Origin: Eubacteriales bacterium
GTDB taxonomy: Bacteria > Bacillota > Clostridia > Lachnospirales > Lachnospiraceae
Direction: 5' to 3'
DNA length: 51,035 nucleotides
NCBI GenBank assembly: GCA_030536755.1
Contig: JAUNPJ010000019.1
Span: forward strand, 1 to 51,035
Under the pieces are notes generated by a model that was not told the origin of the DNA, made no database searches, and worked only from the letters and a program-made list of their open reading frames with translations. This document shows positions 30,266 through 51,035 of this stretch, piece after piece; position 1 is the stretch's first letter, and every line of letters starts with the position of its first letter. Position numbers and translations under genes: made by a program.

Positions 30266-30772
30266 TTATTTTCCGTAATTTTTATATCCTTTTTCCTGCA
30301 GAATCATGTCTTTGGCTTCTACCTGATTTTTCAGATGCTCTGAATATTTTTTGAGTCTGTCAAGAAGCTCAGGATCTGACATCGCCAGCATTTTTGCTGC
30401 CAGAATTCCTGCGTTGGCACCGCCATTGATTGCAACGGTTGCTACCGGAATTCCGCTTGGCATCTGAACGATAGAATAGAGAGAATCTCTTCCTCCCAGT
30501 GAAGTTGTATGCATTGGAATTCCAATGACCGGCATCGGGAAAATTGCTGCACACATACCCGGCAAATGAGCTGCCATTCCTGCGCCTGCGATAATTACCT
30601 TAAAGCCCTTCTCCTCTGCTGTCTTTGCATAGTCAAAAAACACATCCGGTTCTCTGTGAGCAGAGATGATTCTCATCTCGTAATCAACTCCGAGCTCATC
30701 CAACACAGCGGCTGCTTTTGCCATAATCGGCATATCCGAGTCGCTTCCCATTACAATTCCTACTTTTGGCAT
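30266..30772 (-). CDS. purE: N5-carboxyaminoimidazole ribonucleotide mutase
   Basis: This enzyme moves the carboxyl group of N5-CAIR to carbon 4. It begins [13 protein letters not shown], has [10 protein letters not shown] at the active site and [12 protein letters not shown] later. The size of 168 is normal for the bacterial class I form, though no purK is nearby. It is first in the operon, with a 60-base leader behind its own promoter and with the large palindromic repeat just upstream. Confidence 0.95.
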
Positions 30773-30840
30773 GGTAATCTCTCCTTTTCTGTCATATGTG
30801 AAAAAATTTGCTATTTTATAGTATTCTCTTTAACGTTTTC

Positions 30841-30869
30841 ATTTTAATTGTGCTGTCTAAATATGTCAA
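30841..30869 (-). promoter_or_regulatory. Promoter of purE-purM-purN-purD
   Basis: TTGACA (30869-30864) and TAAAAT (30846-30841) on the minus strand are spaced by 17 bp. I see no purine riboswitch in the short leader (30773-30835). Confidence 0.65.
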
Positions 30870-30940
30870 TAACAATATTTTTAAGTCCATCTAATTTTTA
30901 TTTCCTTACTTTTCAAGGCTCGTACACCTGTCCGAAATCG

Positions 30941-31443
30941 TATGGGCACCACTTTCCTCGTCAACGTAGCACTTTCAAACGGCAAAGTTTGACTTGAGGA
31001 CTTCCGAACAGCCATTTGCACAGGGAAGGCTTTCCACATCAAGTGCGATCTCTCCGCTTGTGCAGTCAACCTGTTGATTTTCTTGTTTGGCTGCGCCGCC
31101 TATGGATTGCTTTTCAAACGAACTCGCGCCCTGCGCTCAAACAGTGTTTTCAAAGCAATCGCTGTGCTCGTCCGGGAGGGATACCACCACACAGGCATTT
31201 GGAGAAATTTTCGCAGATTTTTCGAGCATAGCGATTGCTCGCGACGCACTGTTTGAGCGCAAAGCGCGAGTTCGCGGCAAGAGCAATCCATAAGCGGCGC
31301 AGAAAAAGCAAGAAAATCGACATGCCTGTACGGTGGTATCCCTCCCGGGCGAGTGCAGGTCATGTGGAAAGACTCCGGAAGTTATCGACCCGAAAACCGT
31401 GCCATTGGGAAGTGTTCCGTTGACCAGGAAAGCGATGCCCCTA
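30941..31443. repeat. Large nested palindromic intergenic repeat, copy A
   Basis: This roughly 500-bp block has no convincing gene and folds on itself at several levels. Outer arms: about 30941-31050 pairs in part with 31353-31443 (shared TTTCC..GTCAACG..A.CACTT). Main arms: 31076-31146 with 31247-31318, about 60 of 72 positions complementary by hand alignment. Inner arms: 31154-31170 with 31223-31239, one mismatch. The 52-base tip contains CCGGGAGGGATACCACC (31172-31188), perfectly complementary to 31332-31348 outside the main stem. It fills most of the 681-bp gap between purE and the aminopeptidase gene, starting 11 bp past that gene's end. Short ORFs in it are by-products of the symmetry. 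Confidence 0.88.
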
Positions 31444-31453
31444 CGACCTGAGG

Positions 31454-33478
31454 CTAATCCATGAGTGGAAGGTTTAATTCTTCGGTTCCCGGAAGTGTAA
31501 ATTTGCCATTCTCAATGATGGAGATTTCTCTGCCGTCTTTCGTGATGACGCGAATGTATTCCAGTTCTTCATATGGAATTGTGATATCGGTATGGCATCC
31601 CATATAAGCCCTCCCCGGATCTTCTTTGCGCAGGATTGACACTTCATTGTCCCTGGCAATGATTTCCCTGCCATCCGGATTAAAGACAGCCGTATCTTCC
31701 GACCAGCTGTAGCAGGTATCTCCGACTGCAAAATGCGGTCCCATCTTTTCCGCGATCAGAATCGGCAGCTTGTCCTGAATGTGATACTTCTGTGCCATGG
31801 CATACGCCGTCGTATTTGTTCCGATTGCGAACTCGCCAAGCGGAAGGGACTCATGGTGAAACAGCACATTGTCCAGAATGTAATTTCTATTTTCTTCTTC
31901 CTGCTCAAAGTTGCTGCAGGAATACTCTGCCGTCATTCCATCCCGGAACACGATTTTGAGATTTTTGTACAGCAATTCGTCCAGATAGACCTGGCTGACG
32001 TGGAGCACACCGTTGGTTCCGGTCAAAAGCGGCGAAGTAAATACCTCTCCCACCGGAATATTAACATCTGCCACACAGTTTTCAAAATTCGTCTGTTTCG
32101 TCACATTCTCCAGCGGATGCAGCTGCACATAAAGATCGGTCTCATTCGCGCCACAGCCTTTGATGTGTACTTTTTCACCCTGATCCAGTGCCTCGATCAA
32201 AGTCTGCTGAATTTTCTCATATAACTGATAATCTAATGTATTGATCTTCACCGTTTCTTTGAACAATTCCTCGAAATTTTCTCCGATTTCCGGCACCGGA
32301 TACGCAATGATCGTAAAGCTTCTCTCTTCTCCTTTGATGTAGCGATTCGTGATTTGTCCCATCTCACTGCTGCATTTGACCTGGAGTTTCTGCTGTTCCG
32401 GGCTCAATTTCAAGCTTTGCGGTTTTGCCTGCGGTGTAAAAGGAGTCTCCCCAAAAATCTCAATGCAGGCCGGTCCTCCATGCTGACGCGCCAATTCCTT
32501 ATGCTGTTCATAACAATTCTGCGCCACACGCAGTTTACGATGAACAAAATCCTCATCCAGAAACAACGCACAATCATCCTTGTGATCGTACTCATACTGT
32601 TTGTTTGGAATTGCACCATAGTATCCAATGCGAAGATGCTGTCTCTTATTCACCACATGCACAGCACTTCTGAAAATCGTAGGCTGCAGTCCCATCTGGG
32701 CAAACTGTTCCATAGCAGCCTTTACCATTCGCTCAAATCCAAGGCAATAGCGGATATTGACAGTTTTCTTTTTCTCCAGCGGCTTTCTTCCATTGACAAA
32801 TCCAATGCGGTATCCTTCTGTATACGTTCTTGCCATGCTGTCGATTTCTTCCTGCGACATCGAGGCAAGATAACGTGCCACTCCAATCTCATTGTCTGAC
32901 ACATACTCTCCGTATTCATAGAGATAGTCGACAGACTGCAGATCACTGTTTTGAATGATATCTGCCGCAAAGGAATACTGTGGATCTATATTTTCCAGAA
33001 TCCGTCTGCCGACCATTTCTTCACTGTAATCGCTGACATACCAGTACAGGATTTCCCGCAATTCTTTCAGTGATGGAAGTTCTTCCTGACAAAAAGCACT
33101 GTAGATTTCCAAAAATAATTCCTGGCAGACTGTCATATCCCACAGACGTTTTTCTGCAACAAAAGCCGTCATGCCCCGCAGTTCTGCGTAAAGGAAGCAA
33201 AGATACGGCCCATACTGTCCCAGTGTTTTCTCTGCATAAACCGGATTTCCATAACTTTCTTCGTAATGCTCCGGTAAAATGTCTTCATAGATTCTGTAAT
33301 TGTAGTTTTGTTTTTCTTCCAGAGATGCCTCCTTTGGCGGACGTTCTGTCACAAGGCAGAGAAATTCTGCCACACGCTGAAAATATGCCTGATAAGGCAT
33401 GATCACTTCCTTCTCTTGTCTAATATCCCGAATTCTTTCTCTGGATAGTTCATACCGCTCTTTTAAAATATCTTCCAT
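31454..33478 (-). CDS. M29-like aminopeptidase with long N-terminal extension
   Basis: A 674-residue protein whose C-terminal ~350 residues resemble the M29 leucyl aminopeptidases: VNIPVGEVFTSPLLTGTNGVLH, LPLGEFAIGTNTTAYAM, ILIAEKMGPHFAVGDTCYS and GCHTDITIPYEE supply the Glu, His and Asp metal ligands. The N-terminal half (about 320 residues) is a helical extension seen in related clostridial proteins; its function is unknown. It should trim N-terminal residues from peptides in the cytoplasm. The ATG directly follows the HD-protein stop (TAATATG), suggesting coupling. An ATG at 33400 with a good AAGGAAG site is a possible shorter start. Confidence 0.8.
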   Translation of the reverse strand: MEDILKERYELSRERIRDIRQEKEVIMPYQAYFQRVAEFLCLVTERPPKEASLEEKQNYNYRIYEDILPEHYEESYGNPVYAEKTLGQYGPYLCFLYAELRGMTAFVAEKRLWDMTVCQELFLEIYSAFCQEELPSLKELREILYWYVSDYSEEMVGRRILENIDPQYSFAADIIQNSDLQSVDYLYEYGEYVSDNEIGVARYLASMSQEEIDSMARTYTEGYRIGFVNGRKPLEKKKTVNIRYCLGFERMVKAAMEQFAQMGLQPTIFRSAVHVVNKRQHLRIGYYGAIPNKQYEYDHKDDCALFLDEDFVHRKLRVAQNCYEQHKELARQHGGPACIEIFGETPFTPQAKPQSLKLSPEQQKLQVKCSSEMGQITNRYIKGEERSFTIIAYPVPEIGENFEELFKETVKINTLDYQLYEKIQQTLIEALDQGEKVHIKGCGANETDLYVQLHPLENVTKQTNFENCVADVNIPVGEVFTSPLLTGTNGVLHVSQVYLDELLYKNLKIVFRDGMTAEYSCSNFEQEEENRNYILDNVLFHHESLPLGEFAIGTNTTAYAMAQKYHIQDKLPILIAEKMGPHFAVGDTCYSWSEDTAVFNPDGREIIARDNEVSILRKEDPGRAYMGCHTDITIPYEELEYIRVITKDGREISIIENGKFTLPGTEELNLPLMD

Positions 33479-50855: not shown

Positions 50856-51035
50856 TATGTGCACCGCTTTCCTGGTCAACGGAACACTTTCCAACGGCAG
50901 AGTTTGGCTTGGGGCTTCCGAACAGCCATTTGCACAGGGAGGACTTTCCACATCAAGTGCGATCTCTCCGCTTGTGCAGTCAACCTGTTGATTTTCTTGG
51001 TTTGGCTGCGCCGCCTATGGATTGCTTTTCAAACG
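50856..51035. repeat. Large palindromic intergenic repeat, copy B (runs off the window)
   Basis: These 180 bases align with 30941-31120 of copy A, in the same orientation, with 11 substitutions and two single-base gaps by hand count. The last 120 are almost identical. Only the left outer arm and part of the left main arm are inside the window. The block starts about 84 bp upstream of the pyrF -35 box. The rest of the 50716-51035 gap holds only the pyrF promoter. Confidence 0.88.

What the first reader, a model, noticed from the sequence alone, without database searches (positions are those of the whole stretch)
30941..31443. Undescribed ~500-bp nested palindrome between purE and an aminopeptidase gene
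Three nested sets of arms make this intergenic block a giant hairpin, in DNA as a cruciform or in RNA as a long duplex. It has no gene, no transposase and no obvious target duplication. Arms contain frequent GCGC-rich words unlike the surrounding A+T-rich gaps. It repeats elsewhere, so it is either a non-autonomous mobile element or a structured RNA or chromosome-organising element.
Basis: seen in the sequence. Interest (0 to 1): 0.7.

Follow-up and report, generated by a model that had tools for sequence, protein, structure and literature searches.

The report
Giant flipping DNA hairpins in Clostridia
The odd block beside purE is one copy of a kind of giant DNA hairpin that recurs behind genes in Clostridia; a related species keeps it at the same places but often turned round, and its arms change sequence while staying matched to each other, which suggests an unrecognised hairpin repeat maintained at the DNA level.

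Summary
The palindrome is real (fold z -14; score against its own reverse complement 160, best of 100 shuffles 32). It is a 0.5-kb copy, about 265 bp short in the centre, of a 0.8-kb element with 77 distinct termini in this genome; 34 of 47 exact termini lie within 400 bp of contig ends. An outer inverted repeat encloses hairpins whose apexes read AACTC-[small hairpin]-TCAAACAG, one on each strand. The apex occurs in 26 of 299 genomes of the family (reversed control 0), with long matched arms at 27 of 29 testable loci; arms differ widely between loci yet stay complementary. G.T and A.C mismatches are equally common, so pairing looks maintained on DNA, not RNA. In a congener, 14 orthologous termini have the same orientation and 15 the opposite; 12 of 13 orthologous copies are less alike than the closest paralog. 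A third congener has an empty site. The searches made found no cognate transposase, and Y1 transposases are not associated. Best reading: a non-autonomous DNA hairpin repeat at gene 3' ends, exchanged and inverted by recombination between copies, perhaps after hairpin cleavage (inferred). How it first spreads is unknown.

The parts
30917..31454 (.). Whole element with its outer, poorly conserved arms (ends approximate)
   Evidence: GGCTCGTA..TACGACCTGAGGC outer arms; alignment with other copies; both arms absent from the empty site of G001
30940..31003 (+). Left terminal inverted repeat (GTATGGGCACCACTTTCCTCGTCAACG...), left-type interior follows
31375..31444 (-). Right terminal inverted repeat, right-type interior precedes (bounds approximate)
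31072..31170 (+). Core hairpin c, sense orientation, cut short in this copy at about 31166
   Evidence: deletion seen by comparison with the C112 copy
31121..31144 (+). Apex motif AACTCGCGCCCTGCGCTCAAACAG
   Evidence: family-wide search
31089..31106 (+). Second shared internal-loop motif, 5' side (GGCTGCGCCGCCTATGGA); 3' side at 31159-31170
31192..31326 (-). Second, inverted core hairpin, a highly conserved block of the element
31249..31272 (-). Apex motif on the minus strand, AACTCGCGCTTTGCGCTCAAACAG
31454..33478 (-).
   Evidence: no family search was run on it
30266..30772 (-). purE, next gene; a promoter-like site at 30869-30841 (-) lies between it and the element
   Evidence: name taken from the finding, no family search run
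50856..51035 (+). Another copy, cut by the contig end (left-type end)

Best explanation
It is a copy of a dispersed, non-coding, non-autonomous DNA element of Clostridia built as a giant hairpin: a shared apex (AACTC-[tip hairpin]-TCAAACAG) and a few shared internal-loop motifs, joined by long arms whose sequence is largely free as long as the two arms match. Copies lie between genes, mostly behind a gene's 3' end. SHOWN: many copies, shared apex, arms complementary although different between loci, no strand preference, conserved sites with about half of the orthologous copies inverted, and copies more like paralogs than orthologs. INFERRED: the hairpin forms on single-stranded DNA at replication forks; it is cut near the apex (SbcCD-like nuclease) or used as its own template; repair copies one arm onto the other and takes the core from another copy in either orientation. 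That would keep arms complementary, homogenise cores and randomise orientation. INFERRED AND OPEN: rare spread to new sites by an unidentified trans-acting enzyme that recognises the folded apex.
For: Copies and sites. Inversion: 14 same, 15 inverted, 6 unclear among 35 own termini with an orthologous flank (77 examined), which I reduce to about 12 against 11 elements. Exchange (13 of the 14 same-orientation termini compared): ortholog identity 0.77-0.88 in 12 and below the best own paralog (0.88-0.99) in those 12; below the mean paralog in 10 of 13; more than 0.05 below the flank identity in 10 of 13. One G002 element joins flanks of two own elements. DNA-level pairing: G.T 140 vs A.C 146 over 96 hairpins, 41 vs 51 for isolated stem mismatches. 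G017: 7 of 9 usable copies have an arm of 55-60 bp with 0-1 mismatch, while similarity between copies is near that of shuffles; strong matches of these arms in that genome are only their own two sides. Apex in 26 of 299 family genomes, control 0; long arms at 27 of 29 testable family loci. Context 24 tandem, 6 convergent, 1 divergent. Empty site. Own genome has an SbcD over the model cut-off. E. coli SbcCD cleaves the hairpin of a 246-bp interrupted palindrome (PMC3315005, passages).
Against: No nuclease or recombinase is tied to the family: SbcD with E below 1e-30 in 18 of 26 apex-positive genomes (my count from the list), against 206 of 299 genomes over the cut-off; 8 apex-positive genomes have a weak or no SbcD match. 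Gene conversion alone does not explain why unpaired loop motifs stay conserved across genera. The best paralog is a maximum over many copies, so that comparison is biased; against the mean paralog, 2 of 13 orthologs are closer and 1 is equal, and one element is more alike (0.86) than its flank (0.79). One pair is 1.00 identical, flank included, perhaps transfer or contamination (own genome 5.12% contaminated). Contigs are drafts that break at the repeat, so joins, including that, may be wrong. No expression data.
Confidence: 0.58

Rival explanations
1. A MITE or REPIN-like element moved by a transposase in trans (Y1/RAYT or other); inverted copies at shared sites are independent insertions at preferred targets such as terminators.
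For: Terminal inverted repeats; three near-identical copies with ends GACAAACGCATGAAT/ATTCATGCGTTTGTC in G281, perfect in one; random orientation; empty site. Many own termini share an outer CCTGTTTGT motif (41 genome matches of the outer pattern against 5 for its control), and a solo hairpin with that motif followed by T's exists at C23:64268.
Against: Y1_Tnp in 17 of 26 apex-positive genomes against 175 of 299 overall, and not among the matches for G321, a one-contig genome with 16 apexes. No transposase-like family was seen to recur beside the hairpins (ORFs of 100 aa or more in the fetched flanks). No clear target duplication. Independent insertion at about 23 shared sites is less economical than inheritance.
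Confidence: 0.25
2. A structured RNA with conserved internal loops, transcribed and selected as RNA.
For: 25 of 55 pairs with two-sided changes in 12 G321 copies; shared unpaired motifs across genera; very low folding energy.
Against: No wobble bias; no strand bias with respect to genes; inversion between congeners; no Rfam match in the element.
Confidence: 0.08
3. A site-specific invertible switch (recombinase acting on the terminal repeats) controlling neighbouring genes.
For: About half of the orthologous termini inverted; outward promoter-like TTGACG-16-TACGAT at the left end.
Against: Inversion comes with exchange between paralogs; in the loci the hairpins lie mostly behind gene 3' ends. 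Neighbours of own copies outside the window were not surveyed for recombinases.
Confidence: 0.07

Closest known systems
REPINs with RAYT transposases (PMC3116915, abstract and passages seen)
   Same: Intergenic, non-autonomous, hairpin-forming repeats with compensatory changes in the stem
   Different: REPINs conserve both ends and vary the middle, and sit in genomes with a RAYT; here the apex is conserved, arms vary, lengths are several times greater and Y1 transposases show no association
MITEs (definition recalled)
   Same: Short, gene-free, terminal inverted repeats, many copies
   Different: No parent transposon found, no clear target duplication, paired arms that differ between copies of one family, non-complementary apex shared across genera
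Integron attC sites (recalled, no call)
   Same: Recognition by a folded strand with free stem sequence and conserved unpaired bases
   Different: Conserved part is the apex, not the base; far longer; integrases were not searched for
Terminal repeats of parvoviruses (recalled, no call)
   Same: Outer palindrome enclosing two smaller ones; occurs in two orientations
   Different: Chromosomal and internal; no replication protein known here
Intrinsic terminators
   Same: Hairpins directly behind genes
   Different: No terminator-like site in the window copy; hairpins far longer

Membership tests
REPIN/RAYT | RAYT (Y1) transposase in the genome | tested here: not met
   PF01797 in 17 of 26 apex-positive genomes, 175 of 299 overall; G321 not among the matches; own genome has one. 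The model also finds IS200 transposases, so this is a lenient test
REPIN/RAYT | Conserved REP sequences at both ends with a variable middle | tested here: not met
   Conserved apex, variable arms
MITE | Terminal inverted repeats, non-coding, multicopy | tested here: met
MITE | Cognate transposase with the same ends | tested here: inconclusive
   Of 77 own termini 69 have left- or right-type interiors of this element and 8 are unclassified; no transposase-like neighbour recurs in the loci compared; divergent parents could be missed
MITE | Target-site duplication | tested here: inconclusive
   None evident in the G281 copies; the one empty site is too diverged
Structured ncRNA | Covariation with tolerated G-U pairs on one strand | tested here: not met
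   Covariation yes, wobble bias no
Structured ncRNA | Known Rfam family | tested here: not met
   (window stretch and nine loci)
Structured ncRNA | Transcription | not testable with these tools
   no reads available
Intrinsic terminator | GC-rich stem followed by a T run | tested here: not met
   0 sites in 30700-31700; loops over 8 bases are outside that scan, and other copies were not scanned
Integron attC site | Integron integrase and core sites | not tested
   no search made

The most novel reading that the evidence does not exclude
A Clostridia-wide class of DNA elements recognised by the shape of a folded strand: conserved apex and loop motifs, free but self-correcting arms, fixed chromosomal sites whose content is exchanged and inverted among copies. 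They would act as programmed hairpin-break and gene-conversion points, with an unknown protein reading the apex. The commonest apex tip, T-N-C, is GNA on the other strand, the unusually stable d(GCGNAGC) DNA mini-hairpin (stability recalled, no call), which would favour single-stranded DNA as the working form.
Probability: 0.3. Interest if true: 0.85.

Novelty: new variant of a known kind. Interest (0 to 1): 0.68.

Why it matters
In E. coli, SbcCD cleaves the hairpin of a long interrupted palindrome and the break must be repaired (PMC3315005, passages); yet this genome carries dozens of giant hairpins next to genes while encoding an SbcD. If the reading is right, bacteria keep a dispersed set of giant hairpins whose pairing is maintained on DNA, whose content is shared between sites and whose orientation is scrambled within a genus. 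That gives natural material for testing how replication copes with hairpins, how quasi-palindromes are corrected and whether dispersed palindromes drive gene conversion. It also helps to explain why these genomes assemble into fragments.

Tried and rejected
Rfam: nothing above chance for the window stretch; on nine other loci two hits, both outside the element. Reverse-read pattern control: zero in every genome row shown. Idea that the variable arms of G017 are guides or captured host DNA: not supported. The 14 strong matches (100 bits or more) are the two sides of seven arms; of ten weaker hits (38-47 bits) two are the own sides of an eighth arm, four form two opposite-strand pairs 225-247 bp apart (C1, C71), as expected for other hairpins with related arms, and four are single. 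Idea that arms are inverted copies of the flank made at insertion: no arm remnant at the empty site of G001, but that stretch is short and diverged, and in G017 conserved base motifs lie outside the arms. Y1 transposase and SbcD: no association with the apex. Neighbouring proteins: the largest cluster spans 4 loci, all IMG/VR contigs; one that looks like an ABC transporter spans 3. IMG/VR: 39 contigs with the pattern, but only 9 of 39 testable apexes (40 in all) had arms above shuffles, so most are chance or ordinary hairpins. Class-level search: 37 of 391 genomes, 6 of them of the same family; the long-arm test passed in 8 of 15 fetched loci, one of which (L332) is of the family, so the range outside the family is less certain. 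Papers: 10 searches listed no description of this family; the library is open-access PMC text only. PMC2864571, PMC2267715, PMC8040213, PMC3116915 and PMC3315005 were seen as passages only.

Counts to qualify: Of 12 G017 loci three lacked the core motif and were dropped; of the nine, two arms ran only 25 and 18 bp before an indel. In one search, 12 of 13 G321 copies were used; L235, whose 3' arm is broken, was left out. One search used 13 of the 14 same-orientation termini; the second end of a doubled terminus was left out. The tip-loop count includes own copies, none of which is T-N-C. The gene-context count used a simple ORF caller; 3 of 34 loci had no gene on one side and were left out, and some genomes give more than one locus. 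Wobble counts pool paralogs, which are not independent, and include the 15 class-level loci. The output was cut in the middle. Element counts (12 same, 11 inverted) and the PF01797 and SbcD counts for the 26 apex-positive genomes were made by me from the lists.

Full report
The block at 30941-31443 has nested inverted arms, folds far better than shuffles (z -14.2) and aligns to its own reverse complement with score 160 against a best of 32 in 100 shuffles. ORFs over it are at most 87 aa and Rfam gives nothing beyond chance. It lies between the stop of the gene the finding calls an aminopeptidase (31454, minus strand) and a promoter-like site in front of purE.

It is one of many copies. BLAST of the block in its own genome gives 120 matches. 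A terminus pattern gives 80 forward and 77 reverse matches with up to two mismatches against 19 and 21 for the reversed control; 47 matches are exact, and 34 of these 47 lie within 400 bp of a contig end (positions, contig lengths), so the element breaks the assembly. After removing duplicates, 77 termini with distinct flanks were counted, 37 left-type, 32 right-type and 8 unclassified. Full copies such as C112:11064-11904 are about 840 bp; the window copy lacks about 265 bp of the centre. The full copy folds to -445 kcal/mol, z -18.

Architecture. Outer terminal repeats of about 80 bp (GTATGTGCACCRCTTTCCTGGTCAACGG...) enclose a sense hairpin and an inverted hairpin whose inner 116 bp are 82% complementary to each other. 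Each core has the apex AACTC-[small hairpin]-TCAAACAG: in the window + 31121-31144 and - 31249-31272. Some copies carry further hairpins inside loops (L037 and L055).

The apex is shared widely. AACTCGCN{2,9}GCTCAAACAG occurs in 26 of 299 genomes of the family (26 of 298 genera), with no match to the reversed pattern, and in 37 of 391 genomes drawn from the class, 6 of them of the same family. In most cases the bases between the two halves form a small hairpin themselves. Around it a fold of 150 nt on each side shows about 50-130 enclosing pairs in the loci displayed, apart from those cut by contig ends. Long matched arms above shuffles were found for 27 of 29 testable apexes in L189-L218, which cover all 26 genomes, for 52 of 53 in L219-L269, but only for 8 of 15 in the class-level loci (one of them of the family) and 9 of 39 testable in IMG/VR contigs. 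Arms differ between genomes and between loci; a second motif, CTGCGYCGYYTAT / CTATRCTCG, recurs in several genera.

Pairing is maintained on DNA. In 12 of 13 copies from G321 (one broken copy left out), 25 of 55 predicted pairs have two-sided changes. If this were selection on RNA, G.U should far exceed A.C mismatches on the apex strand. Over 96 hairpins the counts are 140 and 146, and 41 and 51 for isolated mismatches inside stems. In G017, nine usable copies share base and core but between these have an arm that is almost unrelated between copies (normalised alignment score 0.30, maximum 0.61, against 0.25, maximum 0.60, for shuffles) and complementary within the copy; in seven of the nine it runs 55-60 bp with at most one mismatch. 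In that genome these arms have strong matches only to their own two sides; two further pairs of weak, opposite-strand matches look like other hairpins with related arms. The simplest account is that one arm is repeatedly copied onto the other.

Position and strand. Of 31 apex loci with genes on both sides (34 examined), 24 lie between tandem genes, 6 between convergent and 1 between divergent genes, in many cases starting right behind a stop codon; in the tandem cases the apex is on the coding strand in 11 and on the other in 13. This speaks against a strand-specific RNA.

History at orthologous sites. Of 77 own termini, 35 had an orthologous flank with an element among the G002 loci held; 14 were in the same orientation, 15 inverted and 6 unclear, by my reduction 12 against 11 elements. 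For 13 of the 14 same-orientation termini, ortholog identity was 0.77-0.88 in 12 and 1.00 in one. The best own paralog was closer than the ortholog in those 12; the mean own paralog was closer in 10, equal in 1 and more distant in 2. The element was more than 0.05 less alike than its flank in 10 of 13; in one case it was more alike than its flank. One G002 element joins flanks that in our genome belong to two different elements, either recombination or a misassembly. Thus sites are inherited while their content is exchanged and inverted. The third congener, G001, has an empty site of 88 bp with neither arm, no exact apex and no BLAST match except two 29-bp pieces that belong to another palindrome.

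Mobility. In G281 three near-identical copies bounded by GACAAACGCATGAAT and its inverse (perfect in one copy, one or two changes in the others) lie at three sites, so the family has spread recently somewhere. No transposase is linked: no transposase-like neighbour recurs in the loci compared, and Y1 transposases are not associated (17 of 26 against 175 of 299; G321 not among the matches).

Mechanism proposed. A hairpin formed at the fork is cut near the apex or used as its own template; repair homogenises arms and takes the core from another copy in either orientation. E. coli SbcCD cleaves the hairpin of a 246-bp interrupted palindrome and the break needs recombination (PMC3315005, passages). 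Our genome encodes an SbcD over the model cut-off, though SbcD is no commoner in apex-positive genomes than elsewhere. This step is inference. It does not by itself explain why apex and loop motifs stay conserved; that argues for a protein that reads the folded strand. The commonest tip loop is T-N-C (59 of 124 apexes; commonest in 25 of 41 groups, a group being a genome or a single locus), which on the other strand is the GNA loop of a very stable DNA mini-hairpin (recalled). Own copies do not follow this.

Novelty. The nearest described kind is the REPIN, with conserved ends, variable middle and a RAYT (PMC3116915, passages); neither feature is met here. Ten searches of open-access papers listed no description. 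I file it as a new variant of dispersed palindromic repeats, with a substantial chance that it is a class of its own.

Noticed in passing
L044, L045, L049 (G001, G029) and the centre of L031: Another palindromic repeat of about 150 bp (TAACTGTTCAGTACC...CCCGAGACATACAAGC...); a decayed piece of it lies in the centre of full copies.
   Followed up: partly
G000:C23:64268-64305 (L146): A hairpin CCTGTTTGTCGGGGG..CCCCCGACAAACAGG directly after a stop codon, with the outer motif of the element but no element inside.
   Followed up: partly
L037 and L055: Extra hairpins inserted into loops of the element (GTACAGCGAATCATAAGT... and a longer relative).
   Followed up: no
L270 (G120:C13:103500-111500): Two apex hairpins in inverted orientation bracket about 3.7 kb with a protein that looks like a small serine recombinase (no family search).
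   Followed up: no
flanks L033, L090, L098, L110, L138: A short palindrome of the type GGACAGGNNNCTGTCC, with variants, lies next to several copies.
   Followed up: no
L354 (G002:C30:2700-4500): Element whose two flanks match two different loci of our genome (C39 at 94%, C68 at 81%): recombination between copies or a misassembly.
   Followed up: partly
L026/L073: Own and G002 copies identical with flanks 1.00 identical, unlike the other 12 pairs compared; may be contamination or transfer.
   Followed up: no
window:30937-30964: Outward promoter-like TTGACG-16-TACGAT in the terminal repeat.
   Followed up: no
window:35787-35800: Isolated outer motif ATTCCTGTTTGTAG away from the element ends that I examined.
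   Followed up: no
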